Assembly (NCBI RefSeq): GCF_003144245.1
Contig: NW_020289979.1
Span: 558,001-622,000, forward strand
From: Jaminaea rosea
Lineage: Eukaryota > Basidiomycota > Exobasidiomycetes > Microstromatales
Length of the DNA stretch: 64,000 nt
Reading direction: 5' to 3'
Part shown: positions 31,162 to 56,738 of the stretch, piece by piece
Numbering within the stretch: position 1 is the stretch's first letter
Layout: each line of letters begins with the position of its first letter
Notes under the pieces: model-generated
The model's database searches: none
What the model saw: the letters and a program-made list of their open reading frames with translations, nothing else
What the model was told of the DNA's origin: nothing
Position numbers and translations under genes: made by a program

Positions 31162-33246
31162 ATGTCGTTGGGTCGCGAAGCAACACAGGTGCGCTCAAGA
31201 GACTCGGTCGCCTCAAGCAAAAAGGGCGCCACGATGCACGGCTCGTCCAAACTGTCGCAGCGACCCTCGCTCCTCTCTCGAGCATACAATTCAATGTCGA
31301 CACGCGGTCAGAAGGGCAAGGAGTCGTTCAAAGAGACCATCGCCAAGGTCAGCTCCCATGAGGATGCTCCTTCAGAGACCACAGCAGCATCAGACCCAAC
31401 ACCAGCACCAAAGAGCTTCGCCGGTGTCTTCCATTCACCGGAGCCAGGGTGTCGTCCTAAGCCACCAGCTAAGCTGACGCCCGATCAGGAGGAGAAGTTA
31501 GCAGAGATGCTAAAGTATTTTCGAGCGAAAGACACATATCCAACATCGCTCAAAGATCCGCAGGCTGAGGAGAAGGCGCCGACAGAGTGGGAGAAGCTGC
31601 GCATGCTGAGCAGGGAGAGCATGCTGAGATATCTGCGAGCGACAAAGTGGGACCTCGCTCAAGCAAAGAAGAGGCTTACGGATACGATTGCTTGGAGAAG
31701 AGAGTTTCGCGTTGACCAGCTCGACCCGAACGTGGTAGAGCCAGAGGCAAGGAGCGGCAAGGAGACGGTGCTCGGTTTCGACAACAACGCCAGGCCCCTC
31801 CACTACATGCATCCTCACCGCAACGATACCAAGGAGACGCCGCGGCAGATGGAATTTGCAGTCTGGATTCTCGAACGATGCATTGACCTCATGCCACCTG
31901 GCGTCGAGCAGTTGGCTCTCCTCATCAACTTTGACCACAAGTCCCGCAACCCCACCAGCATTTCCAACGCCAAGCTCATGCTCTATATTCTCCAAAATCA
32001 CTACGTCGAGCGTCTCGGCGTTGCCCTCTGCATCAATGTACCATGGGTCTTCAAGGCCTTCTGGAGCGCCATTCAGCCTTTCATCGACCCGGTCACCAAG
32101 TCTAAGTGCAAATTCGATGAGGGAATCAAGAGCGAGGTGCCTGCCGCCCAGCTCAGTGCAGAGTACGGCGGCGACGTCGACCCCAAGTACAACCACGATG
32201 CGTACTGGCCCAAATTGGTCGAGCAATGCGACGAGATCCGCGCAAAGCAGTTGAAGCGATTCAAAGAGCAGTGCAACTCAGAGATCGGAGCGTCAGAGTG
32301 GGTCATTCGTGGCGGCAATGACAAGGATTCAACTGAGCAGATGGGCAAGAAGGACATCGAGGACATCGCGCAGGAGGCAGAAGACAAGGCTGCCCTGGCG
32401 AGGACGCAGAGCAACGCACCGGCTGAAGCGCCAACGACTCAGATCTCTGATCCAGCAGCAGCTCGACAGGAGGCTATTGCCGCTTCCAAAGAGCGTGCAG
32501 AGGCGGGCAAGGCGGGCAAGGCGGGCGTCGCTCCCGTCACCTTGCCTAATGGTCACTCCGACGACACTCCTGCCGACTTCAACCAGGGCACCGCCGACAC
32601 GGCCGTCACCCCGTCAGAAGCCTTCAAGACTCCAAGCGCGAACGTGAACAAGAATCCGATCGATCGCCACTTTAGCGCGCTGAATGCGGCGCCCATCGGT
32701 ACTGGCGCGGCTTGCGTAGCAGGAGCAGGTGCAGCAGGATCGGCCGCTGGTGACCCGGCCGTCGCTACGAATGGTGACAAGCCTGCGGCTACCATGTCCT
32801 CTGCAGAGCCGCAGGAGCACCACTCTGACTTCAAGACAGCAATGAACAAGATTTTCCACCCGGACAATCAGCACGGCCATGATCACGAGAAAGGATCGAC
32901 TATCACCAATGGCGATACGACCAACGGCGCATCAGCGGAAGCACGCAGCGTGACACTCCTCCTCTTTGCCGCTGCCCGAGACGCGGCCGGTCGCTCGACG
33001 ATGAGGCTTGACCTTCCGTCTTCACCCTCGCCCTTCCCCCTGAAGGACCTGGCCTCGCTACTTGAGGCGCAAGGCTCGAAGGACAAGGACGCTGAGAAGG
33101 TCAAGGACCTGCCGCGACTTCAGGATGTGCTTAAGCGCTCACAATGGAGTGTGGGGCAGTCGATGGTGGATGAGGACGAGGTTGATAAGACGATGCTCAG
33201 GGGTGGAGAGGAGGTGGCTGTCATACCGCCGGTGAGCGGTGGATGA
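31162..33246 (+). CDS. Sec14/CRAL-TRIO (Pdr16-like) protein fused to a C-terminal MoaD/MOCS2A-like domain
   Basis: Single exon, 694 residues. A basic Ser-rich N-terminus precedes a CRAL-TRIO-N segment (SRESMLRYLRATKWDLAQAK) and a Sec14 lipid-binding lobe containing ARPLHYMHPHRNDTKETPRQ, CIDLMPPGVEQLALLINFDH, PTSISNAKLMLYILQNHYVE, VALCINVPWVFKAFWSAIQP and VPAAQLSAEYGGDVD. These match Pdr16/Sfh3-type phosphatidylinositol transfer proteins. An Ala/Thr-rich linker (about 400-590) follows. From residue 597 the sequence VTLLLFAAARDAAG and the end GGEEVAVIPPVSGG match the beta-grasp MoaD family; the free terminal Gly-Gly (693-694) is what MOCS3/Uba4-type E1 enzymes thiocarboxylate for molybdopterin synthesis. 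No stop lies between the parts. An in-frame ATG at 32794 in good context could give a separate small protein. Both domain calls are strong; fused action is inference. Confidence 0.88.
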   Translation: MSLGREATQVRSRDSVASSKKGATMHGSSKLSQRPSLLSRAYNSMSTRGQKGKESFKETIAKVSSHEDAPSETTAASDPTPAPKSFAGVFHSPEPGCRPKPPAKLTPDQEEKLAEMLKYFRAKDTYPTSLKDPQAEEKAPTEWEKLRMLSRESMLRYLRATKWDLAQAKKRLTDTIAWRREFRVDQLDPNVVEPEARSGKETVLGFDNNARPLHYMHPHRNDTKETPRQMEFAVWILERCIDLMPPGVEQLALLINFDHKSRNPTSISNAKLMLYILQNHYVERLGVALCINVPWVFKAFWSAIQPFIDPVTKSKCKFDEGIKSEVPAAQLSAEYGGDVDPKYNHDAYWPKLVEQCDEIRAKQLKRFKEQCNSEIGASEWVIRGGNDKDSTEQMGKKDIEDIAQEAEDKAALARTQSNAPAEAPTTQISDPAAARQEAIAASKERAEAGKAGKAGVAPVTLPNGHSDDTPADFNQGTADTAVTPSEAFKTPSANVNKNPIDRHFSALNAAPIGTGAACVAGAGAAGSAAGDPAVATNGDKPAATMSSAEPQEHHSDFKTAMNKIFHPDNQHGHDHEKGSTITNGDTTNGASAEARSVTLLLFAAARDAAGRSTMRLDLPSSPSPFPLKDLASLLEAQGSKDKDAEKVKDLPRLQDVLKRSQWSVGQSMVDEDEVDKTMLRGGEEVAVIPPVSGG

Positions 33247-40642: not shown

Positions 40643-43600
40643 TCAGTTGTTCGTCAGAACCGACTTGCTCCTCGGCCGTGCCCTCGCCTCAAATGACACA
40701 CACTCCCCTTCGTCCTGATCTTCGTCACGGCGGCCACGAGCAAGGCGCCCGGTACCATTCAGCATCGTGGCGCCGCTCTGTCTGCTGGTATCGTGATCGT
40801 CCTCCTCATCCTCCTCTTCGCCACTGTCGTCCTCCTCGTCACTGTAGTCGTCGGTGATGAAGTGCTGCTCCTGCTGGAGACGTGTGGCTTTCGCAGCAGG
40901 ACCCCAACGATTCAAGAGGGAGTTGAACTGCGGTGCAGGGGGCTGCTCGTCGTCGTCCTCGCCCTCGCAGTCATCATCGCTGCCGTGGCGTGCAGCTCCG
41001 TTGAAGATGTGAGGATGAGGCGGCGCTCCGCATATTGCTCCTTTTGCCTCATCCGCAACAGGCGAGTTGATGCTCTCATCAGCGTCGGCGAACCGACTGT
41101 CTTCCTCTTCAACATAGCCTCTTGACCGCGGGGCAAGCTTAGAATGCGTCGCGGATTGGACGGCAATCTCCGCGTGCTCCTCGTCCACGCCTGCCAAGCC
41201 GGATGAATGCGTTCCGCCGCTCCCGACCAACCCATCAAGTTGCGCCGACCCTCGTCGGAGGGCAGCCGCTTCGTTCGCCTGGCTATTGATGGGCATCGCA
41301 GATGCAAGACCGCCCGTAATGGCTGATAAGGAGGGCCCGCCACTTGTCGTGGCTAGGTCGTCGCGGGCGGCAGCGGAGTCAGGAGGGTCGTGGAAATCAG
41401 GATTCTCTGCGTGCTGTCGGGCCACGTCGAACGGGTCGACTCCATCGAATAGATCCACTCGGCCATTGTAGGGCGGTTTGAAAAGGTTGTACCCTCCTTC
41501 TACACTAGGCGTCAAGGATGAGGAAGCACGAGGAGCTCCAACACCGAGCCTGTCTTGGCTACCGTCGACAGGGGCCATCGCGCCCGGGCTCGCCCCACCG
41601 TTGCTGACGCCCTCGCTGCTGCTTCCCGTGGCCATGCTGTAGTGCTGCGTCCATCCACGACCATCGTTGCGCATGTACGAGTCACGACGTGAGTCGATGC
41701 CAAGATCATCGTCGGACAGCTCGAGCTCGTCGTCCAGGTCGTCTACATCGATATGCTGCGGGCGAGGGGCAGGAGGGGTATTCTGCTGCTGGTGGGAGGC
41801 GAGCCCACCGGCTGCCACCTTGGCCTGAGAGGCAGGACCATGCTCGTACGACTCGTCATCGTCAAGAGCGATGACGCCAAACGAGTCGCCGCGAGCAGGC
41901 ATGGCTACCTGAGCACCGTCAGCAGTAGCAACGAGGCTATCAGCAGTGGCAGCCTTCCGGCCTTGGTCCTTTTCGCCGAAAGCCAACGACAGCGGTTGAT
42001 GCTGTCTTCGCTTTAAGCCGCGGAAATGGCCCTTGTCCTCCGAGAGAGACGACTTCAGTCTGCCGCCGGAAGCGGATGCGTCCGAATTGGCTGTTCCAGG
42101 CCTCGAAGTCGCGGACGACCCATTGCTGGTAGCCAACGAGCGGCGGCTGGACTCGGAGAAGAAGCGATGCCAGAAGTCACCGCGGCTGCTGCGATGGCGT
42201 GCATTGCCCTTGCCTTCGGGAGAGTGAGTGGTGGTGTTGGGCTCGCTAAGTGGGAGGTCAACGGTGTTTAGAGCAGTGGGAGAGACAGTGTTCGGCGCAC
42301 TGATGCCGCTGCTCTGCTGAGAAGGTCGAGCGGTAGAGGTGCGCGAGAGACCCATGTGCCCGTCAGATGAAGAGCGATCCACTGACGGCCGACTTCTCGT
42401 GGGCGAGATTCCTCCTGCTGACCCGACAGGTCGGCTCGTCGATCGACGCTTCCACAAGAAACGACGACGCTGCTGCTGCTGCTGCTCGTCACGCGAAACA
42501 ATGGACGCAGTGGTCCACCCCATGGCCGGTGCTGATGTCGGAGGTGCGGGCGCAGAGTTCTGAGCGATCTGGCGGAGCATAGACGCAGCGTCCTTGTGCT
42601 CGGGCGATGAGGGGCGACTTCCTGGCTGAGAGCGCGAGACGGTCCGCGACGGGGTATGACCGCCAGAGGAAGCGCGCGTTGAGCGCCCGGCCGTAGTCTT
42701 ACGTGAGGCGGCGGAGCCTTTGCGGAAGAGATTGGCTGCTCCGTGGGGGTGATGGTGCTGATCATCGGCCGTGGGAGTCGTGCCACTCGCGAGATTGAAA
42801 CCGCCTGACTGACCAGGTGAGAGGAAGCCGCGTCTTTGTGACTTGCCTCCGGGTGACGGAGGCACAAGGGCATCGATCTCCGCTGTCGAACGGCTGCGTG
42901 GTCTGCCGAGACCTGTTCGCATGTATTGCTGCTGATGCTCTTGTGTGCCCGTCAGACTATGTAGTAGCTTCGACTGCCAACGCTTGATGCGGCGCTTCAT
43001 CTTCGAAAAGCCGGTCAAGGCGTCCTCGACCTCTTCGTGCGTCACGTCGACCGAGGGCAGTTGAGCAGGATCCGTCTCCTTCAGCCAGCCGTGCGCGTCT
43101 TCGAGATCCTGTACGATCCAGGGGTGAGCCTTGACTTCCTCAAGCTTGATTCGAGTCGCCGGGTTCTTGTCTAGTAGGCGGTCGAGCAGGTTGCGAAGCA
43201 TTCGAGCTTCCTCCGATAGAGAAGCTTCGTCGACGTCAGGTCTCAAGTCTTCCTCGGCGTTCTGAACATCTGCCTCTTCGTCAGTCCACTGAGGCAGTGA
43301 TCTCCAGCGCGGCTTGCGCGGCCCAATGAGCAGACGATCGGCACCAGCCGTAGAGGGAAGGCTGTAGTCCTCGCGCGGAACGACAGCAAAGAGAGCGAAC
43401 TCGCTCTCTGCCGTGAAAGGCACATGACCAAAAAGCAAACAGTAGAGCGTGACGCCCAACGCCCAGACGTCGATGGCCTTGGTGACCTTGGGCTTCGATT
43501 TGCCGCCCGCAGCAGCCTTCCCAAGAAGCCCTCGACCTGAAGGGGTGACGGCAGCCGGACTACCAAGCTGACGAGGTGAAGCTCGTCCACTCTCTCCGCT

Positions 43601-45856
43601 CTTACCATCCATCCATGGGAACTCTCGAGTCCCAATCTCGCTCGCAATGCCGCCTGCAATGCTTTGACCTGTATTTCTCGCTGATGCTGAAGCGGTCGAA
43701 GGATTCGACGCCTCGCCCACTTGGCAAAGCTCAGGCGCGAAGAAAGCGGGAGACCCAGCCGTCTTTGCCAGCTCGTGCTCGTCCATGACGCTTGCATCTC
43801 TCGAGCTCGAGCTGCTAGGAACACCGCCACTGGCAAGAAGCAGAGCGTAGCTGAAGTGAGAAACACCAAAGTCGGAGATCTTGACGCGACGCTCTTCGTC
43901 CCACAGCAAGTTGGCCGGCTTGATGTCGCGATGGATGATGCCTTGATAGTGGAGATACTCCAGTCCAAGGACAACGTCTCGCATGATGCTTCTGGTCTCG
44001 GCAACGGTCAAGGTAGGAAAGCCTCGCGCGTCCTTCCAGATGACCTCTCCGCCTGCCATGTATTCGAGGACGAGGAAGATTTTCTTGCTCTGCGGATCGT
44101 CGATGACCTCGCGCAGTCGCACGACGTTCTCATGAGAGAGCTTCTTCAGAATAGCTATCTCTCGTCTGACCTTTTGATCCGTCGTCATCATTTGTGCTTT
44201 TCTAGCCTTGGCAGCTTCCTTTTCTCTCCTCTTTTGTAGCTCGAGGTCGGCGAAGGTAGGTCTGCTGGGGGCGCCTTCGCCCCATCGACCGTAGCGAGCC
44301 GCAGCGTACATCTGAGCCCGTGGTGACGCAGGAGGGCCAGACGAGGTCGGGGTTGGCGGGTCTGCAAAGTCGACTGCTCGCTGCTTGCCCGTCGGCGCGC
44401 CTTCTTCCGCATACTGCTCCTCTGCTGCTGCTGCGACTGCTTGTCTCTCCTTCTCCTTAACCGCCGATGCCGACGATGATCCCATCATCCTCGCTTGCCA
44501 GCCTCCCGTAGCCAAGCCCAGCCTCTTCTTACTTTCTCTCTCGACAATCTTGACCGCCACTCGCTCTCCTGACTCTGTGTCGCGAGCCAGCCTGACCTTG
44601 CCGTGAACGCCTCTTCCAAGCTCGTCCTCGATGATGTACTGGTTGATCATCCTTCTGCCGCTCGGCGCGTGCGTCTGCAGCTGAAGATGGTGCGTCTCGA
44701 GCACTTTAGGCGGCTGGTGATGCATGCCTGATGGAGTAGCATAGCCTGATGTAGGCGAGTTCGGATGCGTGGTAGGAAGAGAACCACTATTGCTCGACCC
44801 TCTTGTCGGTCCGCCAGCCGCTGTTGAACTGTGGACAGGTGAGGCAGAGCCCGGCGTTGTGACTGTGGATGAATGCTGCTTGCTGCCGTCAGATCCCGAA
44901 TGTCTCGCCGTATTGGTCCGCGAGAGCATTGCACTGAAACCACTGCTGCCGGCGCCTACGTTGCCATTTGCTGACGCCGCCGCCGCCGCTGCTGCTGCTG
45001 CTCCACTATGCTGGTTCTGGTGAAGTGAGGCCGCTGCTGAGCTTAAAGACGTGCCGCCTCCTGGCCCTCTATGCACGCTAGACCGCCTCGATGGTGATTC
45101 TGAATGTATCGAATCCGTAGCAGAACCTGGAAGCGACCATGTCGGCTCTGCGAGATCATGTGCAGCGCTGGGCTCTGACGGCGAGCTGTAGCAGGCCGGT
45201 GATACGACGGCGCTGCTGCCTGCAGACGCCGCTTGCTGCTCTGCGAATAAGCCTGCCTTAAGCATGGCTGCAGCTTGCAATGATCCTCTACGGCTCCCGA
45301 TGGGAGGAGCTGCGTCTGGTGGAGTTCTGAGACTAGATGCAGACGGAGCCGGACCTGTCAGTGCTCGCCCGAGACGAGGGAACTCCGGCGGCTGTAAGGA
45401 GCTTTGATCTACGCTACTGCTACCACTGCCACTGCCGCTGCGACTGCTCTTGGCCTCTGCTTGTACCAGAGATTGTCGTCGTCCGACGCGATGGTGGGCG
45501 GACAGGGCTTGCGCATAACTGGCCGCTGCTGAGGCAGAGTCTGCGTCTGAAGTGGTTGTCGAAGCAGACGACGTCGAGATGAATGTCTTGGACGAGTAGC
45601 TCCTGAGACCGTCGGGCGCGCCGTTAGACAGAGGTCTCGTCTCAGTGGGCGATGAAGAAGCAGCGGGTGAATGACCAGCAGAACCAGCTGTGGTGTTGAT
45701 ACGCAGAGGTGCAAAGGGTTCTAGCTTCGATGAGGGCGATTGCGAAGAAGAGGTTGAAGGCGATGAAGATGAAGATGGCTCGGACTCTCCTGCCAGACGC
45801 AGCCGATGCTGAGAAAGGTTCTCGTCATTGCTGCCCTCTTGGCCGCCGTCGGTCAT
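40643..45856 (-). CDS. Giant CaMKK/SNF1-activating-type serine/threonine kinase (1,737 aa)
   Basis: Single exon. The kinase domain spans about residues 405-915 with two long inserts. Its markers are QYIIEDELGRGVHGKVRLA, the VAIK equivalent VAVKIVERESKK, then after a roughly 110-residue insert REIAILKKLSHENVVRLREV. Next are FLVLEYMAGGEVIW, IIHRDIKPANLLWDE, KISDFGVSHF, then after a second insert TAGSPAFFAPELC, IDVWALGVTLYCLLFGHVPF and a closing HPWIV. The GEVIW and GSPAFFAPEL signatures are those of the CaMKK/Sak1-Tos3-Elm1/Ssp1 group, which phosphorylate the activation loop of SNF1/AMPK. The N-terminal 400 residues and C-terminal 800 are disordered Ser/Ala/acidic sequence, with a terminal acidic stretch (DDYSDEEDDSGEEEDEEDDH). 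It is far longer than animal CaMKK (about 500), but long fungal members are known. A cytosolic role in glucose/energy signalling is inferred. Confidence 0.87.
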   Translation of the reverse strand: MTDGGQEGSNDENLSQHRLRLAGESEPSSSSSPSTSSSQSPSSKLEPFAPLRINTTAGSAGHSPAASSSPTETRPLSNGAPDGLRSYSSKTFISTSSASTTTSDADSASAAASYAQALSAHHRVGRRQSLVQAEAKSSRSGSGSGSSSVDQSSLQPPEFPRLGRALTGPAPSASSLRTPPDAAPPIGSRRGSLQAAAMLKAGLFAEQQAASAGSSAVVSPACYSSPSEPSAAHDLAEPTWSLPGSATDSIHSESPSRRSSVHRGPGGGTSLSSAAASLHQNQHSGAAAAAAAAASANGNVGAGSSGFSAMLSRTNTARHSGSDGSKQHSSTVTTPGSASPVHSSTAAGGPTRGSSNSGSLPTTHPNSPTSGYATPSGMHHQPPKVLETHHLQLQTHAPSGRRMINQYIIEDELGRGVHGKVRLARDTESGERVAVKIVERESKKRLGLATGGWQARMMGSSSASAVKEKERQAVAAAAEEQYAEEGAPTGKQRAVDFADPPTPTSSGPPASPRAQMYAAARYGRWGEGAPSRPTFADLELQKRREKEAAKARKAQMMTTDQKVRREIAILKKLSHENVVRLREVIDDPQSKKIFLVLEYMAGGEVIWKDARGFPTLTVAETRSIMRDVVLGLEYLHYQGIIHRDIKPANLLWDEERRVKISDFGVSHFSYALLLASGGVPSSSSSRDASVMDEHELAKTAGSPAFFAPELCQVGEASNPSTASASARNTGQSIAGGIASEIGTREFPWMDGKSGESGRASPRQLGSPAAVTPSGRGLLGKAAAGGKSKPKVTKAIDVWALGVTLYCLLFGHVPFTAESEFALFAVVPREDYSLPSTAGADRLLIGPRKPRWRSLPQWTDEEADVQNAEEDLRPDVDEASLSEEARMLRNLLDRLLDKNPATRIKLEEVKAHPWIVQDLEDAHGWLKETDPAQLPSVDVTHEEVEDALTGFSKMKRRIKRWQSKLLHSLTGTQEHQQQYMRTGLGRPRSRSTAEIDALVPPSPGGKSQRRGFLSPGQSGGFNLASGTTPTADDQHHHPHGAANLFRKGSAASRKTTAGRSTRASSGGHTPSRTVSRSQPGSRPSSPEHKDAASMLRQIAQNSAPAPPTSAPAMGWTTASIVSRDEQQQQQRRRFLWKRRSTSRPVGSAGGISPTRSRPSVDRSSSDGHMGLSRTSTARPSQQSSGISAPNTVSPTALNTVDLPLSEPNTTTHSPEGKGNARHRSSRGDFWHRFFSESSRRSLATSNGSSATSRPGTANSDASASGGRLKSSLSEDKGHFRGLKRRQHQPLSLAFGEKDQGRKAATADSLVATADGAQVAMPARGDSFGVIALDDDESYEHGPASQAKVAAGGLASHQQQNTPPAPRPQHIDVDDLDDELELSDDDLGIDSRRDSYMRNDGRGWTQHYSMATGSSSEGVSNGGASPGAMAPVDGSQDRLGVGAPRASSSLTPSVEGGYNLFKPPYNGRVDLFDGVDPFDVARQHAENPDFHDPPDSAAARDDLATTSGGPSLSAITGGLASAMPINSQANEAAALRRGSAQLDGLVGSGGTHSSGLAGVDEEHAEIAVQSATHSKLAPRSRGYVEEEDSRFADADESINSPVADEAKGAICGAPPHPHIFNGAARHGSDDDCEGEDDDEQPPAPQFNSLLNRWGPAAKATRLQQEQHFITDDYSDEEDDSGEEEDEEDDHDTSRQSGATMLNGTGRLARGRRDEDQDEGECVSFEARARPRSKSVLTNN

Positions 45857-47354: not shown

Positions 47355-49013
47355 TCAGTGCGCCTTGCCCTTTGGCTTTTTTGGCCCTTCATCCTTGCCG
47401 TCTGGCGTACCATTCGCATCCTCGTCCAGCCCAGCCTCATTATCTTGGTCGTCTTCTTCCTTTTCGTTGTCGTCCTCGTCCTCATCTTCTTCCTTCCTGG
47501 AACGCTTCTTGCCATCATTCTTGGACTCCTCGAGCGCCTCCTTCTTCCTCACAGCCTCGAGAGCCTTCTTGTGCTTCTTGCCACTGCTCGTCCCTCCTTG
47601 ATCCCACTCCAAATCATAGTCCTCAGCCACATTCTTGATGACCCGCCTCAGCTCCCTGACTTCATCGACGAGCTCACGGAAGCGCTCCGCATTGAAGCCC
47701 TTCTCCATGTAGAGTTTCGCCTGCCTACGGGAGGTCGTCTCGCTCAGCACGGCGCGATAGCTTACATCGCGATTATGAATGAGCACCCAGCTCCATGTCC
47801 CAAGAAGGCCTCCAAGGCCAACAAGGTAGGTGACGGGTTCCATAAGGTCCCAGCCGTACTCTACCTTGACGAAGGTAACGTAGCAGACCACGAACCACCA
47901 TGCGAACCCCAAGCACGCCCCACCGATGGCCAAGCTACGCGTACCAGTTTGAGCCAACTGATCACACTCGGCCTTCAGCTTCGCCATGCTCTCTATCCTA
48001 CCCGTCTTGGCGAACAATGACGCCCTCAAGAACTTGGTCCTGTCCTCAAAGCTGGGAACGGAGACCCTTACGTTGCGATGGCCGATGCGCACGACGAAAG
48101 TTCCTACCCGAGCAGCATCGCGGAGAAAGTCGCCAATTCCCGTTGCGGGAGACCAGCGTTTCCCGTCCCCTGAGCGGGTGTGGAAGGAGATGGAGGGCTC
48201 GTACTGTTGAGACGAGGGGAGGGAGACGTCGCGACGTTGTTGGTCACGGTCTTCGTTGGATGTAGGTGAGGACGATTCCGCAGAAGCTTCTCTGTTCATC
48301 TCTGCCGTGATGTAGCTAGGCTGTTCGGCTTTGATGAGCGAGGCAACGTAGCTGAGAGGCTGTGCCGAGTGCAGCAGGAAGACGACGCTCTTTGCTGGTG
48401 CTTTGGCATCGAATTCAGTCGAAATGTCCTCCGATGGTTCTCCTTGCTCCCCTTGATGCAAATGAGAAGACGACTTTGTGGTACCTCCCTTTCCTTTTCT
48501 CTTGACCTCGGTCGAAGCTGACTCGGACTCGACTTGAGATACGGACTGACCTCTCTCCACTCTCGACTCCCAAGGTTCCGGGTCCAGGGGCCCGCTGTCG
48601 TTCTCGCTTTCTGCGTTGTGAAGATCCCCCTCCTTTTGTCCTTCGCTTTGAGCCGCGGCTTGCGCTTCGTCCATCAATGTTCGGGCGAGTGGGGAGGATG
48701 CCTTTGACGTGGGAGAGTTGGGATCCTGCACCGCATCGGGCGGTGCGAGAGGTAGGGTGAGCTTGAAGAGGGAGGCCTTAGTGAAGGCGAGGTAGCCTCG
48801 GTCGCCATCGTCTATGCGCTTCTTCTGCTCTTGTTTGAGCTTCTCGAACGCTTGCTTGGGGTTGATGGGCTCAGCAGACGAGGGTAGGGTGGACTTGACG
48901 TCTACGCGGCGTAGGCGGGATGTTGAGAAGAGGCGCCGCGGTATTGATGGGCCGGCTATGTGGGATAGCGAGGATGTTGGAGAAAAGCCTCTCCGACATG
49001 TCAAGGCTATCAT
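47355..49013 (-). CDS. MCU: Mitochondrial calcium uniporter, pore-forming subunit
   Basis: Single exon, 552 residues. It has an Arg-rich presequence (MIALTCRRGF then RRLFSTSRLRRVDVKS) and a soluble matrix domain including SVVFLLHSAQPLSYVASLIK and GTFVVRIGHRNVRVSVPSFE. A coiled coil precedes TM1 (LAIGGACLGFAWWFVVCYVT). The pore loop is YGWDLMEPVTYL (Asp389, Glu392), with DLME in place of the animal DIME selectivity filter, and TM2 is VGLGGLLGTWSWVLI. A helical matrix tail and a Lys/Asp/Glu-rich C-terminus follow. The product mediates electrogenic Ca2+ uptake across the inner membrane as a tetramer. Fungal uniporters generally work without EMRE; no MICU-type EF-hand gene lies in this window. 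The 5' end faces POM152 across a 489-base divergent promoter. Confidence 0.93.
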   Translation of the reverse strand: MIALTCRRGFSPTSSLSHIAGPSIPRRLFSTSRLRRVDVKSTLPSSAEPINPKQAFEKLKQEQKKRIDDGDRGYLAFTKASLFKLTLPLAPPDAVQDPNSPTSKASSPLARTLMDEAQAAAQSEGQKEGDLHNAESENDSGPLDPEPWESRVERGQSVSQVESESASTEVKRKGKGGTTKSSSHLHQGEQGEPSEDISTEFDAKAPAKSVVFLLHSAQPLSYVASLIKAEQPSYITAEMNREASAESSSPTSNEDRDQQRRDVSLPSSQQYEPSISFHTRSGDGKRWSPATGIGDFLRDAARVGTFVVRIGHRNVRVSVPSFEDRTKFLRASLFAKTGRIESMAKLKAECDQLAQTGTRSLAIGGACLGFAWWFVVCYVTFVKVEYGWDLMEPVTYLVGLGGLLGTWSWVLIHNRDVSYRAVLSETTSRRQAKLYMEKGFNAERFRELVDEVRELRRVIKNVAEDYDLEWDQGGTSSGKKHKKALEAVRKKEALEESKNDGKKRSRKEEDEDEDDNEKEEDDQDNEAGLDEDANGTPDGKDEGPKKPKGKAH

Positions 49014-49502
49014 CCCCAGGGGCGAATGTGAGGGTAAGATGGAAGGATGGGGTATGGCAGCCTTGGATGGTGGGTCAGTGTTGGACTCTTGTATCCAGTC
49101 GTGCCAACTGAGTCTGCCGCCAAGGTGTGGGGGCCAGGGTCCAAACGAACGTCACACTGCAGCTACCGATACGACGCCCATCTCGACCCCCTACCCTATT
49201 CATTTCAAGACGCAGCGCAGCCCTGGTATGGGATAGATGGGCATTGCACCGCCACACAGTGGATTGCTGATCTTCATTGCAATGTCACTTGCTCTTTGAG
49301 CCGTTGAGAAGGTCCCAAGAAAGCTTGCAGCCAATGCCCTCGTGTTCCCTCCCGCGTGGCCCCTCGCTGAAGTCGGAAAGAGGTTGAGAAGTCAGTCGCG
49401 GCCGCGTCTGGCTAGACAAAAAGCTTTCGATCCATCGACGTCCACTACCACCATCAAAGGCCATCCAGCTCGTAGCAGGCTGGATTGCGCATAAGCTCAC
49501 TC
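49014..49502. promoter_or_regulatory. Divergent promoter between MCU and POM152
   Basis: 489 bases, no coding sequence seen. The TTG-initiated frame at 49485 joins the POM152 frame, but the first ATG is 49503. Confidence 0.45.
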
Positions 49503-52500
49503 ATGGTAGTGGCAGGAGGGCTGCAAGCAGCGGCGCCGCCAACGTCCTCCTCCTCCTCATCATCATCATCATCAGCAGCAGCAGCGACGACGTCTGCGTC
49601 AAAAGTGCCGCCTACAAGGGCAGCCGCGCAGCCTCCTCTCATCCCCACGTCGGTAGTTGACGCACCGACGCAGAGACTGTGGGCAGCCAGCTTGACGGCT
49701 GCCATCCAAGCGTACAAACTATACAGCTTCTTCTCGCCTGACGCATCGCTATCGCATGCGCTACTGGTTGACCTTGCCCTCGTCTTGGCCCTTTCAAGAT
49801 TACGCATCCCGCGCCTCGACTTCATCGATGCCAAGTGGGCCATCATTGGCGCCCTCCTTGCTGCCTTCGACTGGCTCGCCCTCGGGGGATGGCACACTTT
49901 GCTGTCCTTTGCAGGATTGGGCGCAGTCACTAGCTGGATTGCAGCCGTATGGGATGATGCCTTCTCGAGGCCCATGGGCCTCTCAGAACATCGCGTGCGA
50001 ATCAGCGATCTCATCCGGCCCAGCTCACACATCCTAGGAGAACACACCATCCACATTCTCCCTCATAGCACAGCCAGCATCTCATCCAGGGCGCCTACAT
50101 GCCATTGCATTGGTGTCGGCAAGTCGCGAGTTGAGATTCCCATCTTCTTCAACAATACGGACCCTACCTTCCTCCAGTATAGCGTCACGCCTTTTGGCTC
50201 GGAGAACGCCTACCCGACCCTGTACAATGTCACGATCTCCAAGGGAAGTCTCACCACAGTGGAAAGCGCTAGAGACATGCTCCAAGGTGGCGTTAAGCAG
50301 GCAATTCAGGACGGACATTGGGACGAGGTTGAGGCAGAGGTCATGGGGTCAGGCTCCGTCGTGCAAAGGCAGGGCCAGCATGTCCCAGCAAGAGCAGGGC
50401 AAAGGTCGAGGAAAGCCAAAGATTCAAACATGCATCCGCGTCAAAGCAGTCAGCAGAAGTTCGACCTGTCCGTCAGCGCGATTGGCCGTGTCCGGTTGGA
50501 AAGGGTGATGGACAAGAGCCGCATGGACGCTCGCATTGCGCCGGGTGAGGTGATCATCGTGCAATGCCCTACTACCAGTTTTGCACCATCGCTTGATGGG
50601 CAGGAGGCTGGATCTTCGCCGCTCGCGCTCGTCAAGAAGTCTGCTGCGGCGCCAAGGGGTGGCGCTCATCAGATCGAGCATGCCTGCCCTGGTGATCAGA
50701 CAGAGCTTTTCGTCAATGTCCAAGGTCTGGCTCCCATGGAAGTCTCTTACAGACGCAAGTGGACGCCTGGCGCACGCAATGGAAGGGCAAAAGCCGAGGA
50801 CGAAACGAAGTCGATCAGTCACATCTCTGATCCCAGAGTTGCGAGCCCATTGATCGGTGCAGAGGACGGCACGAGCAACGCAGAAGATGTCCTGTCCGCA
50901 CTCCTCGGCCGTCGCCACGGCAGTACTCCTGGTGCTGGCTTCCGGAGCTTCGACTGGGCGCTTCCGCAGCACGAGAAGGTGCCCATTTTTGCCCGCCTTG
51001 ATAGAACGGGCAGCTACTCGTGGGAGCTGGACCACGTAAGGGACGCCTGCGGCAATGAAGTCAGCATGAGCTCCATCGGCAAAGCGCAATTCTCGAAGGG
51101 TGGCAAGCTCATTGGCGCTGCCAGCGGTAGCTCTGCGTCGCACCCAGTGGCTCGCAAAGAGATCCAGGTCCATGAGCGAGCACACGCTACCATCGTCGGG
51201 TGCTCGCGAGAACGCCCTCTCCAACTGCTTCGCAATGGCACAGCAAAAGAGGTCCTCCTGCGTGCAGCCAATGTCGAGACTGACGCCAAATGGACGGCGT
51301 CAGTCCGCTTCGAGCCCGAGGATGACAGCACCGATGCCTGGACGAAGAACGTCACCATCGGCAACGACGGTCTTGGCCGCATCCAAGCCGCCAAGCCAGG
51401 CAACTACATCCTGGAGCAAATTGACGGTTCCTACTGCTCAGGCGAAGTCGGTTCACCTTGGTCGTGCCCCGTCATCGAGGTACCTCCACCGACGGCCGAC
51501 ATCAGCTTTTCGACCATCGAAGACGTCTGCGCAGGCTCGGTCGGCGTAAATGCCATGGCGGTGCTAAGCGGCAGCCCACCTTTTCGCCTTCAGTACGAGA
51601 TCAAGCGATCAGGGCAGCCCGCATTCCGCCAGGAGCGTGTCATTGAGAGAACGAGAGAGGAGTTTGAGTTCAGACCGTCGACAGAGGGAGCTGTTCAGTA
51701 TCGCTTCATCGGACTTTCGGACGCCAATTACAGAGGCTTGCCGCTGGATGGACCTACATTCGAGCAAGTTGTCCACCCGCTGGCCAGCGCCAGCTTCGTC
51801 AAGCCAACGAGCAGCAGTGCCTCTCGCCGCGAGGACTCTAAGATCATCATGCGAAGCTGCGAGGGGAATCGCGCCAAAGCAGAGGTTCAATTGGAGGGCA
51901 CAGGTCCATTTGACCTCACCTACGCTCTGCGCACCGCAAACAGTGGTTCATCTGTGGGCTCAAGCAGCTCACATCAAGCCGCAGCGATTCAGCACACGGT
52001 CAAGGGTATCACACGGCAGCGCCACACCCTGGACATCGAGCTTCCGCCTGCAATCAATGCGCATGGAGGTTCCATGACGATTAGCCTGGTCAGCATCCGC
52101 GACGGGAAGAACTGCGAGCGCTCCCTGACTACATCGGATGTCAACGTCGAAATTCGTCGCGTCCACCCTACGGCGGCATTTGTTGTGCCTGGAAGTAAGG
52201 CGGCTCAGCGTACAGCGGTGCTCCAGGGCGAGTCGTTGATCCTCGAAGGTCAGGAGGCCAAGCTGCCCCTCCGTCTTGAGGGTGAGGGACCGTGGAAAGT
52301 TGAGTACCGAAGAGAGGGAGACGCAGTTCCTGTAACCACGACGCTGCATAGCCCTGAGGCGGAAATCGTCGTCGACCGACCGGGCGTATTCCAGCTCGTG
52401 TCGGTGCACGATGCTTATTGCCAAGGGTCAGTCGTTCAGCAATCATCAAGATGGAATGTCGAGGTGCGACGCAGGCCTGTCGTGGCATTCGACGCTGCAT

Positions 52501-54128
52501 CAGCCGCAAGCGTTGGCGGCCAAGGCCGGTCCAGCAAGCAGCAGCAGTTGAGCTCCCTCATACGCCCACCCGTCTGCCGCGGAGTACCAGATAGTGCCAA
52601 CTTGCTCCTGCTGTCAGGGCAAGCGCCCGTGCAAGTCACGTACGAGCACGAAGCTCCCGTCTGGTCTGCGCAAGATGGCGCAGGACAGAATGGCGATCGC
52701 TTTGCCATCGAAGAGGCCGCCTCATCGTCATCTTCGCCCACTGGAAGGCGTAAACGCGAAACGTTTTCGACTGCACAGAACATCACGTCACTACATCTCT
52801 CCACCAGCGTGCCCGGTTGGCACAGGTATCGCCTTGTGGAGGTAGGTGATTCCAGCTACGCGCTAGGCGCAATCTCACGAAGCGATAGCGATGACTTGGT
52901 CCTCGAACAGCTCGTCCACCCTCTCCCCTCAGCCCGCTTCATCGATCAGGACCATCACAGCAGCGAGCAACAGCACAGACGAGGTGGCCGCTCGGGCCCG
53001 AACAAGCGCAAATCCTTCTGCCTAGGTGACACGCTCAGCGGTCGAGATATGGCTCGTGCTGCTCCCATAGTTCAGTTGAGCGGCTCACCTCCCTTCGATT
53101 TGGAGTTCGAGCTGGTCAGCCAATCCAATCCGGGTGCCACGCCCTCGACGCCGTCGCGACGCTTCGTGAAGCGCGGCATCCAAATGCACAATGTTGCCCT
53201 CGACTTGAACGAGGCGGAGAGTATTGGCGAAGCAGGGGACAAGCCTTTCCGCCTGGACTCGACCGGCACATGGGTGTATCGCATCGTCTCTCTGGTGGAC
53301 GGGAATGGATGCAGTTCTACGCCTTCACCAGGCGAAGACTCCTCCTCCAGCGGCTCCTCTTCCGCATCCTCACCACCCTCACTCTCTATCAATGTGGCGG
53401 AAACTGCCAACCTGGCCTCTGTGGGCGCACGGGACGACTACTGTGTCGGCGAGAGGATCCAGTACGTCCTACAGGGAACTGCGCCGTGGACTGTCGTGTA
53501 CTCCTTCGAGGGCAAGGTCAGCACCGCGACCAACTTGAAGACCTCGACTAGCTTCTCTCGCATTGCCGAGAAACCTGGCGTACTGGAGATCAAGAGCGTC
53601 GCGCATGCTTCCGCTGATGCTGACGCTGACTCTGTAGGTGGCGGCGGAGGTAGCTGTCGCAAGGAGATCACCAACCCGGCCACCGAGTCCGGCATGCGTA
53701 AAACGATCCACGCGCTCCCTCGGGTGCGCATCATGGACGGCGGCCATTCCTACCAGGATGTCCGGCAAGGCACACTCGCCACAATCCTCTTCTCCCTGTC
53801 GGGCGAGCCGCCCTTCGATTTCACTTACCAGCACCTCGAGGCCACCGATAGACACTCCGACCCTAAGGTGCTCGAGACACGTACCGTGGTTGGCGTAAAT
53901 GCGAGAGAGTACCGACTGCAGACGCGCGAGCAGGGCACGTGGAGGGTGACGTGGCTGAAGGATCGATGGTGTAGTGTCAGTATTGATGGAGAGACGGGGG
54001 ATGTGAAGCGAGGAAGCGGAAGGTCAGTCAAGGCCAAGAAGATGGCTGTCAGGGGTGATGTGAAAGGGACGATAGGGAAGGGAGAGGGCGTAGAGGCTGG
54101 AGGGGCTTTTGAGATTGAGATGGAGTGA
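49503..54128 (+). CDS. POM152: Nucleoporin POM152-like integral membrane nuclear pore protein
   Basis: Single exon, 1,541 residues from the ATG at 49503. After a Ser/Ala-rich cytosolic lead come membrane segments: TQRLWAASLTAAIQAYKLY, then ALLVDLALVLALSRLRIPRL and WAIIGALLAAFDWLALGGWH followed by LLSFAGLGAVTSWIAAVWDD. This is the POM152 N-terminal layout. The motif IPIFFNNTDPTFLQYSVTPF opens the lumenal region, which consists of repeated Ig-like (cadherin-like) modules recognisable by recurring GxxPFxLxYE elements: GSPPFRLQYEIK, GTGPFDLTYALR, GEGPWKVEYRRE, SGQAPVQVTYEHE, GSPPFDLEFELV, GTAPWTVVYSFE, GEPPFDFTYQHL. These repeats form the lumenal ring around the pore. Single-exon structure and length (yeast is 1,337) fit the family. 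The gene ends 68 bases from the ATG7 stop, tail to tail. Confidence 0.93.
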   Translation: MVVAGGLQAAAPPTSSSSSSSSSSAAAATTSASKVPPTRAAAQPPLIPTSVVDAPTQRLWAASLTAAIQAYKLYSFFSPDASLSHALLVDLALVLALSRLRIPRLDFIDAKWAIIGALLAAFDWLALGGWHTLLSFAGLGAVTSWIAAVWDDAFSRPMGLSEHRVRISDLIRPSSHILGEHTIHILPHSTASISSRAPTCHCIGVGKSRVEIPIFFNNTDPTFLQYSVTPFGSENAYPTLYNVTISKGSLTTVESARDMLQGGVKQAIQDGHWDEVEAEVMGSGSVVQRQGQHVPARAGQRSRKAKDSNMHPRQSSQQKFDLSVSAIGRVRLERVMDKSRMDARIAPGEVIIVQCPTTSFAPSLDGQEAGSSPLALVKKSAAAPRGGAHQIEHACPGDQTELFVNVQGLAPMEVSYRRKWTPGARNGRAKAEDETKSISHISDPRVASPLIGAEDGTSNAEDVLSALLGRRHGSTPGAGFRSFDWALPQHEKVPIFARLDRTGSYSWELDHVRDACGNEVSMSSIGKAQFSKGGKLIGAASGSSASHPVARKEIQVHERAHATIVGCSRERPLQLLRNGTAKEVLLRAANVETDAKWTASVRFEPEDDSTDAWTKNVTIGNDGLGRIQAAKPGNYILEQIDGSYCSGEVGSPWSCPVIEVPPPTADISFSTIEDVCAGSVGVNAMAVLSGSPPFRLQYEIKRSGQPAFRQERVIERTREEFEFRPSTEGAVQYRFIGLSDANYRGLPLDGPTFEQVVHPLASASFVKPTSSSASRREDSKIIMRSCEGNRAKAEVQLEGTGPFDLTYALRTANSGSSVGSSSSHQAAAIQHTVKGITRQRHTLDIELPPAINAHGGSMTISLVSIRDGKNCERSLTTSDVNVEIRRVHPTAAFVVPGSKAAQRTAVLQGESLILEGQEAKLPLRLEGEGPWKVEYRREGDAVPVTTTLHSPEAEIVVDRPGVFQLVSVHDAYCQGSVVQQSSRWNVEVRRRPVVAFDAASAASVGGQGRSSKQQQLSSLIRPPVCRGVPDSANLLLLSGQAPVQVTYEHEAPVWSAQDGAGQNGDRFAIEEAASSSSSPTGRRKRETFSTAQNITSLHLSTSVPGWHRYRLVEVGDSSYALGAISRSDSDDLVLEQLVHPLPSARFIDQDHHSSEQQHRRGGRSGPNKRKSFCLGDTLSGRDMARAAPIVQLSGSPPFDLEFELVSQSNPGATPSTPSRRFVKRGIQMHNVALDLNEAESIGEAGDKPFRLDSTGTWVYRIVSLVDGNGCSSTPSPGEDSSSSGSSSASSPPSLSINVAETANLASVGARDDYCVGERIQYVLQGTAPWTVVYSFEGKVSTATNLKTSTSFSRIAEKPGVLEIKSVAHASADADADSVGGGGGSCRKEITNPATESGMRKTIHALPRVRIMDGGHSYQDVRQGTLATILFSLSGEPPFDFTYQHLEATDRHSDPKVLETRTVVGVNAREYRLQTREQGTWRVTWLKDRWCSVSIDGETGDVKRGSGRSVKAKKMAVRGDVKGTIGKGEGVEAGGAFEIEME

Positions 54129-54196: not shown

Positions 54197-56738
54197 TTAC
54201 AGCTCGCTCTCGTCTTCCTCGCTTCCACTCCACTCTCCCACATCCCCCCCTTCCATCAACAATCGCTCCGTCTCTTCGTACATCTTATCCAGCCCCGTCA
54301 GCCTCTCGAGATACCCCTCTGCCTCGGCCGGGTCCTCGCCGAGCGCCTTGCGTACCATTGCCCATCCCTCTGTCCTATACTGCCGAACCACAACCTCGGA
54401 GCACGCCGTACAGCGGTCGAAGGCCTGCCCTGTTACTCGGCGAGAGGAGAAGGAGGATAGGGACCCGCGTAGCTGATGGGGAAGTAATCCGAGACAGCAT
54501 TGTGGATCGGGGTCATCACCGGAAGGTGGCGCGGGTGCGTTGTGACGGCGTGGATGTTGGAGCAGTGAGATCATGAGCTCTACGGCGGAGGCGGAGGCGA
54601 TTGCTGCGAGGCCTGGCCGTGTGACGGTGCACATTTGATCGAGAGTGCGATCTGTAAGGCTCTGTGCGAGCGGATGGGGAAGAACAGGAGTCAGCGAGAG
54701 GATGGGAGTGATGCGGAGCGCGATGATTGCAACTCACATCCGTAGGTGCCACAACATCATTGCAAAAGTAGCAGCCCAATCGTCTGCCCTCGCCCTCCTT
54801 CTCTTGTGTCGCTTCGTTCGTCGGAGGCCCAGCTCCATGCCTCATGACTAAAAATGTATCAAATCCCAGCGCAGCATTTATCACCAATTTCCCCTTGGCC
54901 GCTCCGAGCAAAGTCGGCAACCACCTGCTCTCCCTCGAATCCATGAGCAAGAAAATCGCATCATGCTCATCAAAGAGTCGCTCCAAGTGCGCAACATCGC
55001 GCTCACTGCCTCCTCCCCCGCCTGCTTTGTCCCCTTTGCCGGCAGTATGCCCATGCCCAGGCATTGGCACTCCCATTTCAACCCCCCTTGCCTTGACCCC
55101 AGGGAAGACTTTGCCCAGTCGCTCAGCTGCACATTCCGCCTTGCTCCTTCCTCCTGATAAGCAGTCCTCAAAATCGAACAAGGGTTGCCGAACCGGATTG
55201 GAGAAGCTGACTTTCCCATTATCCACCAGAGTCATCTCCCTCACGCCCCATGCGAGGAGCAAGCGAGCGACGTAGCAGCCCAGCGTACCGGCGCCGAGTA
55301 TCAGGCAGCGGGTGCGAGAGATGACCTCGAGATCAATCTCTGGCAGGAGGCGCCAGCGCATCAGCTTGAGGTTGAGGTCCACGGCTTGGTCGGCAAGGCG
55401 GTGCGGGTCCATTAGCGGACCCAGGTCCGCTACCCGTGGGGCGAGCTTGTTCTGCGCATTGCGCTCCCATCCTACTGCTGCTGGGCGGGCAGGGAACGAG
55501 GCAAGCTGCGCGAGTGGGAGAGGAGACGGGGATCCCTCCGGTTGGACAAGGCCTCCTGTTGAAGAGGCATTGTCAGTAGGAAGGAAGACAGTGCCCATGA
55601 GCGAAGCTGAAGTACCCGTAGAGGTGGACGATAGCTCATCTCTCCAGCAGACGGCACGAAGTTTCTTGACGCCCCACCGTACGGCAAAGAGGTTGAGAAG
55701 GTTGCGTAACGGCCAGCCTGGCGCAGAGTCGTGTGACGATGGATCGATGAAGAGGACCGTAGGGGGCTCACTCTCCTCGACGCCTCCAGGATAGAAGCTC
55801 ACATAGTCGGTAATACGACCGAGATGATAGCCTTCTCCTTTTTCCTTTTGCCTCACAAGTGCAAATCCGGCATCACAAGTACCCTTATATCTTTCAACGT
55901 GCTCCCTCAATGCCTCGCTCATCTTCTCCCCTTGTTCCTCCTCTATTGCACTCCATCCTCCTCCCTGGAGTGACCAGCCGGGCTTAGCCACGAGTGCAGG
56001 AAGTGCTGCCCAGTGGTAGAATTTGTGCTTCTTGAGGTCCGCGTAGGCCAGGATGGTGAACCTCAACACGGCATCGCGTAGGGGTTCCGGGGAGTGGAGA
56101 AGGTTGGAGAGAATCTGCGAGCGAGGGGCCGTCAGAGGAGGAATGGTGAGCAGGAGTATGTCTGGACAGGCGCGAATGATCGCAAAGATGGGGAATGCAG
56201 CCTCACCTCATCTGCCTGTGAATTGAAGAGGGCATTCTTGTCTGCCGAAGTGAAGGCGACGGCTGTGTTGTAGTTGAGGAGGGTTCCGTATGCTGGGACA
56301 GAGAGGGGCCGGTTCGAGCTTGCTGAAAATGGCTGTGACGATGAAGTAGCTTCTAATGGTGGCCTTCAGAGGGCTCAGAGGAGGTAGATGTTCCATCAGC
56401 AGACCGCATATATGCTCGCTCCTGGACCGCTCCACAGCTCACCCTGCCTGTCCCCTGGCATCGACCGCCTCGAGACTCCCCTCTGCCAGAGCCAGCGTAC
56501 CCTGGACAGCCACCACTTCCCCCGTCTTTCGATCCTTGACCCTTCTCGCAACACCATACTCTCCTCGCAGCGGAAGAGGAGCTTCATTCAATCGAAGCCG
56601 GTCGAGCTTGAGAGTGGAGAGGGCGTGCCAGAAGTCTGCGGAGATCTGCGTTGGGAGGGGAGAGAATTGGAGGATATTGGACGCGGTCGCCGTATCGTTT
56701 GGAGCGGACGGTGATGGTGACGAGGAGGAGGAGGCCAT
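54197..56738 (-). CDS. ATG7: Ubiquitin-like-modifier-activating enzyme ATG7 (autophagy E1)
   Basis: Four exons inferred: 56738-56443, 56363-56207, 56114-54738, 54661-54197 (764 residues). The N-terminal domain carries FSPLPTQISADFWHALSTLK and, after the first intron, NRPLSVPAYGTLLNYNTAVA, then TILAYADLKKHKFYHWAALP. The adenylation domain has LNLKLMRWRLLPEIDLEVIS, the nucleotide-binding GAGTLGCYVARLLLAWGVRE, DNGKVSFSNPVRQPLFDFED and a DAIFLLMDSRESRWLPTLLG stretch. The last intron splits the catalytic region [23 protein letters not shown], placing the catalytic Cys at about 621. The C-terminus ends with an acidic tail (GSEEDESEL). ATG7 activates Atg8 and Atg12 for transfer to Atg3 and Atg10. 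Introns here are ordinary and the call is secure. Confidence 0.95.

What the first reader, a model, noticed from the sequence alone, without database searches (positions are those of the whole stretch)
31162..33246. Sec14/Pdr16-like lipid-transfer protein fused in frame to a MoaD/MOCS2A-type sulfur carrier
One uninterrupted 694-codon frame carries a CRAL-TRIO domain and then a complete beta-grasp domain ending in VIPPVSGG, with the free terminal Gly-Gly needed for thiocarboxylation in molybdopterin synthesis. MoaD is normally a free protein of 80-90 residues. Either a phosphoinositide-transfer protein carries the Moco sulfur carrier (possibly coupling membrane or lipid state to nitrate assimilation), or one transcript yields two proteins through the internal ATG at 32794 or by cleavage, recalling the bicistronic animal MOCS2 gene. 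The domain calls are established-family matches; the physiological coupling is inference.
Basis: partly seen in the sequence, partly recalled or inferred. Interest (0 to 1): 0.78.

Follow-up and report, generated by a model that had tools for sequence, protein, structure and literature searches.

The report
Lipid-transfer protein fused to sulfur carrier
In one class of smut-related fungi a single gene joins, in one reading frame, a lipid-transfer protein to the small sulfur-carrier protein that is likely needed to build the molybdenum cofactor; searches of this genome found no other copy of that carrier, so use of nitrate would likely depend on the fused gene.

Summary
ORF 31162-33246 (694 codons, open without splicing) carries a Pdr16/Sfh3-type Sec14 domain and, after a linker of about 200 residues predicted to be disordered, a MoaD beta-grasp domain ending exactly in VIPPVSGG-stop. 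In searches of the 16.6-Mb genome of origin it is the only MoaD/ThiS match, while MoaE, MoaA, MoaC, Uba4/MOCS3, Urm1, nitrate reductase and a second Mo oxidoreductase have matches. 27 of the 62 relatives found (the window included) are such fusions, with named species from five orders of Exobasidiomycetes; all 27 end in SGG. In the sister class Ustilaginomycetes the PDR16 proteins found are unfused, and three named species have a free MoaD of 89-93 residues. No conserved internal start, linker intron or cleavage motif was found. A translated, full-length Sec14-MoaD protein is therefore the best reading, its free Gly-Gly predicted to be thiocarboxylated by Uba4 and used by MoaE. Whether lipid state regulates Moco synthesis is untested. 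Novelty: a new domain architecture of two known families; the listings of my ten searches of an open-access library showed no paper on it.

The parts
31162..33246 (+). Fusion ORF, 694 codons plus stop TGA, open without splicing
   Evidence: frame open and codon score positive throughout; a simple consensus scan (introns of 40-200 bases) found two candidates in the ORF, none with a donor after 32300
31495..31683 (+). CRAL_TRIO_N domain (aa 112-174)
   Evidence: Pfam PF03765, 42.1 bits
31750..32172 (+). CRAL_TRIO (Sec14) lipid-binding domain, Pdr16/Sfh3 type (aa 197-337)
   Evidence: Pfam PF00650, 136.5 bits; PDB Pdr16 chains E about 1e-64
32008..32010 (+). Glu283, counterpart of Pdr16 E235 (PI-binding residue)
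   Evidence: alignment; residue role from PMC4331669 passages; invariant in A1
32104..32106 (+). Lys315, counterpart of Pdr16 K267 (PI-binding residue)
   Evidence: alignment; PMC4331669 passages; invariant in A1 and A3
32323..32943 (+). Linker (aa 388-594), predicted disordered
   Evidence: pLDDT by tens mostly under 55 from aa 391, 27-41 over aa 471-590; codon score positive in frame 0 only
32623..32676 (+). Conserved linker motif FKTPSANVNKNPIDRHFS (aa 488-505)
   Evidence: pattern in 22 of 27 fused proteins and 2 of 25 unfused smut tails; mean 0.0 of 25 in shuffled unfused tails
32794..32796 (+).
32944..33243 (+). MoaD (ThiS-family beta-grasp) domain, aa 595-694
   Evidence: Pfam PF02597, NCBIfam TIGR01682 end-to-end alignment below cut-off, fold matches
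33220..33243 (+). C-terminal VIPPVSGG; Gly-Gly directly before the stop
   Evidence: 27 of 27 fused proteins end SGG

Best explanation
The gene is a conserved fusion in which a Pdr16-type Sec14 lipid-transfer domain and the only MoaD found in the genome share one reading frame, and it is predicted to be translated as one full-length protein whose C-terminal Gly-Gly would be thiocarboxylated by Uba4/MOCS3 and would serve MoaE as the small subunit of molybdopterin synthase. Shown here: one open frame, the domain order, the free Gly-Gly, no second MoaD match in the genome, matches for MoaA, MoaC, MoaE and Uba4, and the fusion in named species of five orders of Exobasidiomycetes, with a linker of variable length. 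Inferred: that the full-length protein is the working form, with MoaD as a mobile arm on the linker; that the Sec14 domain still binds phosphatidylinositol (its two known binding residues are kept) and brings the sulfur carrier near membranes; and that the fusion happened once. The model gives no ground for a fixed contact between the two halves (contacts were not measured), so any lipid regulation would more likely act through location, abundance or oligomer state. Neutral co-expression without regulation fits the same anatomy.
For: Only MoaD/ThiS match in the genome: family search and free S. reilianum MoaD as query at E up to 10, one hit, this ORF, 51% identity. Partner matches: MoaE, MoaC, MoaA, Uba4, Urm1 (37), nitrate reductase and a second Mo oxidoreductase. 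27 of 62 relatives found, the window included, are CRAL-TRIO + MoaD fusions, all ending SGG; named hosts fall in Microstromatales, Exobasidiales, Entylomatales, Georgefischeriales and Tilletiales. In the Sec14 tree 25 of the 27 unfused smut-type rows form one clade (97/93) with Ustilago, Sporisorium and Violaceomyces. Linker codon score +0.333 in frame against -0.27 and -0.34 (window only). PI-binding Lys kept in 27 of 27 fused proteins and Glu in the 23 that cover it (mapping). MoaD is modelled as a folded domain, the linker as disordered.
Against: No transcript, proteome or biochemical data could be consulted. An internal promoter is not excluded. The open frame of the relatives is partly a matter of how they were found (fused proteins were sought), and some named ones may be spliced gene models. 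Two rows of the fused clade lack MoaD: P0034 (groups with Tilletia, ends just before the MoaD start) and P0013 (Ceraceosorus, labelled partial). One 84-aa free MoaD, P0064, falls inside the fused-MoaD clade (28 rows, SH-aLRT 95, unresolved within): it could be a truncated exon, or a free MoaD in this lineage. The CRAL-TRIO part of the full-length model is of low confidence, so the Sec14 assignment rests on sequence. Of 11 fused proteins scanned with Pfam, two are below the ThiS cut-off (P0051 18.1, P0058 22.1 against 22.5).
Confidence: 0.68

Rival explanations
1. One gene, two products: the full-length Sec14-MoaD protein plus a free MoaD made by proteolysis in the linker, by an internal promoter, or by alternative splicing; the free form would do the Moco work.
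For: The linker is long and predicted disordered, so it may be open to proteases. Met545 and Met561 lie 56 and 40 residues before the core, and ATG 32794 has an A at -3. M. tuberculosis MoaX must be cleaved to work (PMC4326299, abstract and passages), and human MOCS2 makes two proteins from one mRNA (PMC9370521 passages). P0034 ends right before MoaD, and P0064 looks like a free MoaD of this lineage.
Against: MoaX is cleaved right after a Gly-Gly that is internal; here Gly-Gly is already terminal. 23 ATGs, the start included, precede 32794; Met positions are not conserved and 4 of 27 lack one within 90 residues; the stretch just before MoaD shows no conserved motif in the 8-sequence alignment; no intron candidate in the linker.
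Confidence: 0.22
2. Neutral fusion: two unrelated housekeeping proteins became joined, the free MoaD was lost, and the fusion persists by ratchet without any functional link between lipid binding and Moco synthesis. (Not exclusive of the best explanation: it differs from it only on coupling.)
For: Linker length varies (210-303 residues from the GASEW motif to the MoaD core in the 22 of 27 where it was measured). Both separate proteins exist in the sister class.
Against: No clear fission was found among the sampled fused lineages (P0013, P0034 and P0064 are unresolved), and a short linker motif is kept in 22 of 27, which hints at constraint. In N. crassa the fused Mo insertase could not be replaced by its separate domains (PMC11489736, abstract and passages), so Moco fusions can become functionally needed.
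Confidence: 0.45
3. Assembly or gene-prediction artefact joining two neighbouring genes.
For: None beyond the oddity of the pairing.
Against: The frame is uninterrupted in the raw DNA and the same fusion is read in 26 other proteins from several sources; five of these (P0053, P0058-P0061) look like unspliced reads (inferred from disrupted or missing CRAL-TRIO parts) in which linker and MoaD share one open stretch.
Confidence: 0.01
4. The MoaD domain is no longer a Moco carrier but a ubiquitin-like tag or a lost-function remnant.
For: ThiS score only just over the cut-off; moaD model score lower than in 7 of 7 free fungal MoaD controls; Urm1 and SAMP1 folds also match.
Against: Terminal IPPVSGG kept in 26 of 27, ITPVSGG in one; a separate Urm1 match exists; nitrate reductase and MoaE matches are present with no other MoaD found.
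Confidence: 0.04

Closest known systems
MoaD / MOCS2A / CnxG, small subunit of molybdopterin synthase
   Same: beta-grasp fold, C-terminal Gly-Gly, MoaE and Uba4/MOCS3 matches in the genome
   Different: known as a small free protein (84-164 aa in the 120 rows listed, a search limited to short proteins); here the C-terminal domain of a 694-aa protein
Pdr16/Sfh3 phosphatidylinositol transfer protein (Sec14 family)
   Same: CRAL_TRIO_N + CRAL_TRIO, E about 1e-64 to the solved protein; both PI-binding residues kept
   Different: long C-terminal extension ending in a MoaD domain
M. tuberculosis MoaX (MoaD-MoaE fusion)
   Same: MoaD fused to another domain of a larger polypeptide
   Different: MoaD is N-terminal there and must be cleaved after Gly82 (PMC4326299); here Gly-Gly is terminal and the partner is not MoaE
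Bacterial C-terminal fusions: MoaD on aldehyde ferredoxin oxidoreductase (Azoarcus), ThiS on sulfite reductase (some actinobacteria)
   Same: sulfur carrier at the C-terminus of a larger protein (PMC1779556, passages)
   Different: partners there are metabolic redox enzymes; here a lipid-transfer protein in a eukaryote
Fungal Mo insertase NIT-9 (fused G and E domains)
   Same: Moco-pathway fusion with a variable linker in fungi (PMC11489736, abstract and passages)
   Different: both halves belong to the Moco pathway
Human MOCS2 bicistronic gene
   Same: small MPT synthase subunit encoded together with another protein
   Different: overlapping frames and two proteins (PMC9370521, passages); here one continuous frame

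Membership tests
MoaD/MOCS2A | Pfam ThiS match over cut-off | tested here: met
   24.1 bits against 22.5
MoaD/MOCS2A | NCBIfam moaD equivalog cut-off (a bacterial and archaeal naming threshold, not a defining feature of eukaryotic MoaD) | tested here: inconclusive
   32.1 and 36.9 bits against 66.15, so below; the control of 7 free fungal MoaD proteins is below as well, 7 of 7, at 38.1-58.6 bits
MoaD/MOCS2A | beta-grasp fold like solved MoaD | tested here: met
MoaD/MOCS2A | C-terminal Gly-Gly | tested here: met
   27 of 27 fused proteins
MoaD/MOCS2A | MoaE and activating E1 in the same genome | tested here: met
   MoaE; Uba4 (PDB match E 6.8e-41; the rhodanese part was not found by Pfam at E 0.001)
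MoaD/MOCS2A | thiocarboxylation and MPT synthase activity | not testable with these tools
   needs biochemistry
Pdr16/Sfh3 (Sec14 family) | CRAL_TRIO_N and CRAL_TRIO domains | tested here: met
Pdr16/Sfh3 (Sec14 family) | PI-binding Glu and Lys (E235, K267 of Pdr16) | tested here: met
   E283 and K315
Pdr16/Sfh3 (Sec14 family) | best match in own genome to a smut PDR16 | tested here: met
   P. flocculosa PDR16 (P0019) finds this ORF at 499.7 bits; the next of 6 hits is 138.4 bits
Pdr16/Sfh3 (Sec14 family) | lipid transfer activity | not testable with these tools
   needs biochemistry
bicistronic / two-product gene (MOCS2-like) | separate or overlapping second reading frame | tested here: not met
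   one continuous frame
bicistronic / two-product gene (MOCS2-like) | conserved second start codon | tested here: not met
   Met positions not conserved, absent within 90 residues in 4 of 27

The most novel reading that the evidence does not exclude
In Exobasidiomycetes molybdopterin synthase is a lipid-tethered enzyme: the PI/sterol-binding Sec14 half holds the sulfur carrier at membranes, and its lipid-dependent location or dimer state sets how much sulfur reaches MoaE, so membrane lipid state gates Moco supply and nitrate assimilation.
Probability: 0.2. Interest if true: 0.85.

Novelty: new variant of a known kind. Interest (0 to 1): 0.62.

Why it matters
MoaD is usually a small free protein that must visit both its E1 and MoaE. 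A lineage spanning several fungal orders that seems to carry it on the end of a lipid-transfer protein is a natural experiment on whether the carrier works when tethered, and gives a concrete, testable link between a Sec14 lipid-binding protein and a cofactor pathway. It also bears on annotation: looking only for a small free MoaD in such a genome would wrongly suggest that Moco synthesis is incomplete.

Tried and rejected
Internal start at 32794: rejected as a conserved mechanism. Introns in the linker: a simple scan for introns of 40-200 bases (donor, branch point, acceptor) gave two candidates in the whole ORF, none with a donor after 32300; a real splice prediction was not possible. Linkage to its own E1: a ThiF match inside the window (54516-56069, -) is ATG7-like, not Uba4; the Uba4 match is on contig C13. 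Homology of the linker to the tail of unfused smut PDR16: not significant by BLAST (best E 0.12) or phmmer (no hit); only the short FKTP...DRxFS motif recurs, in 2 of 25 tails. A genome hit of P0019 runs into the linker, but the pairwise comparison stops at aa 389. Direction of change: the outgroup root leaves open whether one fusion arose in Exobasidiomycetes or in the common ancestor with later fission (outgroup branches are very long). The MoaD tree (147 rows, 88 columns, quick method) has many unresolved forks. Full-length model: mean pLDDT 57.6, pTM 0.45, CRAL-TRIO core of low confidence, not used for fold search. Papers: ten searches; two searches found nothing, and none of the listings (titles and starts of abstracts; 20 of 71 papers shown) showed a Sec14-MoaD fusion. 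The library holds open-access papers only; I opened passages of five papers.

Limits of the protein searches: one search scored only the 7997 candidates sharing most words and was cut at E 1e-20; one search scored 7994 candidates and listed 120 of 1581. Counts of relatives are therefore of what was returned, not of what exists. Rows dropped before counts: the Sec14 tree left out 8 of 62 (P0009; P0042 and P0052 with garbled tails; P0053 and P0058-P0061, disrupted or truncated in the N-terminal part). The motif count in unfused tails left out P0009, P0013, P0034, P0042, P0052 and five outgroup rows.

Full report

IS IT MORE THAN CHANCE? The linker (aa 388-594) has no stop in this frame but 4 and 9 in the other two of the strand; its codon score is +0.333 per codon in frame and negative in the other five frames, as high as in the domains (0.21-0.32) (codon usage taken from nine other long ORFs of the window). 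19 of 2000 first-order Markov sequences of the same composition stay open. The same fusion was read in 26 more proteins. Their open frames are partly a matter of how they were found, and some may be spliced gene models.

DISTRIBUTION. Searches returned 62 distinct proteins (cut at E 1e-20). 27, the window included, combine CRAL-TRIO with a C-terminal MoaD and end in SGG; one (P0009) is a MoaD fused to a metallo-beta-lactamase; 34 have no MoaD: 25 unfused smut PDR16 proteins, two of the same look with garbled tails (P0042, P0052), five distant outgroup proteins, and two members of the fused clade (P0013, labelled partial; P0034). Named fused species: Jaminaea pallidilutea, Parajaminaea phylloscopi and Sympodiomycopsis kandeliae (Microstromatales), Exobasidium rhododendri (Exobasidiales), Tilletiopsis washingtonensis (Entylomatales), Tilletiaria anomala (Georgefischeriales), Tilletia indica and T. 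horrida (Tilletiales) (taxonomy; T. horrida not looked up). I scanned 11 of the 27 with Pfam: 9 pass the ThiS cut-off, P0051 (18.1) and P0058 (22.1) do not. In the sister class, 25 unfused PDR16 proteins (among them Ustilago, Sporisorium, Pseudozyma, Violaceomyces) form one clade (97/93), and free MoaD proteins are listed for Kalmanozyma (89 aa), Sporisorium reilianum (93 aa) and Testicularia (92 aa, partial) (120 of 1581 matches were listed). The contigs given for the S. reilianum MoaD (528,884 b) and PDR16 (636,629 b) differ in length, a hint that the two genes lie on different chromosomes there (that both come from one assembly was not checked). The window groups with Jaminaea and Parajaminaea (97/85). 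In a tree of 120 free and 27 fused MoaD domains the fused ones fall in one clade (SH-aLRT 95) that also holds one free 84-aa protein, P0064. P0064 starts within the first strand (MLYFASAR), so it may be a truncated exon, or it may be a free MoaD of this lineage.

OWN GENOME. A six-frame ThiS search of the 16.6-Mb genome has one match, this ORF; a free S. reilianum MoaD used as query at E up to 10 again has only this ORF. The rest of the pathway has matches: MoaA and MoaC about 650 bases apart on C12, MoaE as a 365-aa ORF on C2 aligned to the human catalytic subunit including the PIWK stretch, Uba4/MOCS3 on C13 in two exon-like pieces (PDB Uba4 E 6.8e-41; no rhodanese hit by Pfam), Urm1 on C8, nitrate reductase on C14 (best PDB match NADPH nitrate reductase, E 1.4e-27) and a second Mo oxidoreductase on C11. 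The search ignores introns, so a MoaD split into very short exons could be missed, and the genome may be incomplete. The unfused P. flocculosa PDR16 finds this ORF at 499.7 bits and the next of 6 hits at 138.4 bits: the fused gene is also the genome's closest match to the smut PDR16.

ANATOMY AND MECHANISM. The two residues changed in the PI-binding mutant of yeast Pdr16, E235 and K267 (PMC4331669, abstract and passages), align with E283 and K315 (both pairs lie 32 residues apart). The Lys is present in 27 of 27 fused proteins and the Glu in the 23 that cover it (pattern counts, with the variants read by eye). The linker is predicted disordered and varies in length (210-303 residues from the GASEW motif to the MoaD core in the 22 of 27 where measured). 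It keeps one short motif, [FY]xTP...[DE]RxFS, in 22 of 27, function unknown. Because MoaD is at the C-terminus its Gly-Gly is free, unlike MoaX, which must be cleaved after its internal Gly-Gly (PMC4326299, abstract and passages). Nothing in the sequence therefore requires processing. I infer that the full-length protein is the working carrier, visiting Uba4 and MoaE on a flexible arm. The Sec14 half should still bind PI; whether it brings MPT synthase to a membrane is untested. Recombinant yeast Pdr16 was reported as a homodimer, with a proposed model of monomerisation on PI binding (PMC4331669), and MPT synthase is a heterotetramer with two MoaD (PMC4326299); that a Sec14 dimer could present two MoaD domains together is speculation.

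TWO-PRODUCT READING. ATG 32794 has an A at -3 but is preceded by 23 ATGs, the start codon included, 11 of them in frame. Distances from the last Met to the MoaD core range from 2 to 90 residues, and 4 of 27 fused proteins have none within 90. In the eight-sequence alignment the residues between the HHD block and the MoaD start are unconserved and gappy, so no cleavage signature is seen there. P0034, which groups with Tilletia, ends at PAPALQA, where T. indica continues PAPALQGEQ and soon into MoaD; this could be an intron, a contig feature or a real short form, and is unexplained.

COMPARISON AND NOVELTY. C-terminal sulfur-carrier fusions are known in bacteria (MoaD on aldehyde ferredoxin oxidoreductase, ThiS on sulfite reductase; PMC1779556 passages), and fungal Moco enzymes can depend on being fused (N. 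crassa NIT-9; PMC11489736 abstract and passages). The listings of ten literature searches in an open-access library that lacks most subscription journals showed no Sec14-MoaD fusion. Some database records of these proteins already carry the label 'molybdopterin converting factor small subunit' or 'phosphatidylinositol transfer protein', so each half has been named before. I rate it a new variant of a known kind: a new architecture of two known families, conserved in the sampled orders of a fungal class.

Noticed in passing
P0009 (Leucoagaricus sp. SymC.cos, 412 aa): A MoaD domain at the N-terminus fused to a metallo-beta-lactamase domain, with VSGG followed by LQPH..., so Gly-Gly is internal; either a gene-model error or a fusion that would need cleavage like MoaX.
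   Followed up: partly
G000 contig C12:312202-313707: MoaA (Mob_synth_C) and MoaC matches lie about 650 bases apart on the same strand, suggesting a MoaA-MoaC (cnxABC/MOCS1-like, names recalled) gene.
   Followed up: no
window 32623-32676: Conserved linker motif [FY]xTP...[DE]RxFS in 22 of 27 fused proteins and, as FVTSSEELSGEPIERQFT, in the tail of unfused Violaceomyces PDR16; function unknown.
   Followed up: partly
P0034 (groups with Tilletia, 644 aa): CRAL-TRIO protein that ends just where MoaD would begin; could be an intron or a short form.
   Followed up: partly
P0064 (84 aa, unnamed source): Free-looking MoaD that falls inside the fused-MoaD clade and starts within the first strand; truncated exon or free MoaD.
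   Followed up: partly
P0041: A smut-type fusion protein recorded under the fern Adiantum nelumboides; likely a fungal contaminant of that assembly.
   Followed up: no
window 54516-56069 (-): ATG7-like E1 fragment (ATG7_N plus ThiF), an unrelated neighbour.
   Followed up: partly
window 49485-54128 (+); 47355-49013 (-); 40643-45856 (-): POM152-like nucleoporin, mitochondrial calcium uniporter (MCU) family protein, and a large protein kinase; ordinary neighbours.
   Followed up: no
L014 (G000 contig C14:440920-444552): A stretch resembling the Rieske-like end of a nitrite reductase (by eye, recalled) lies beside the nitrate reductase, as in a nitrate-assimilation cluster.
   Followed up: no
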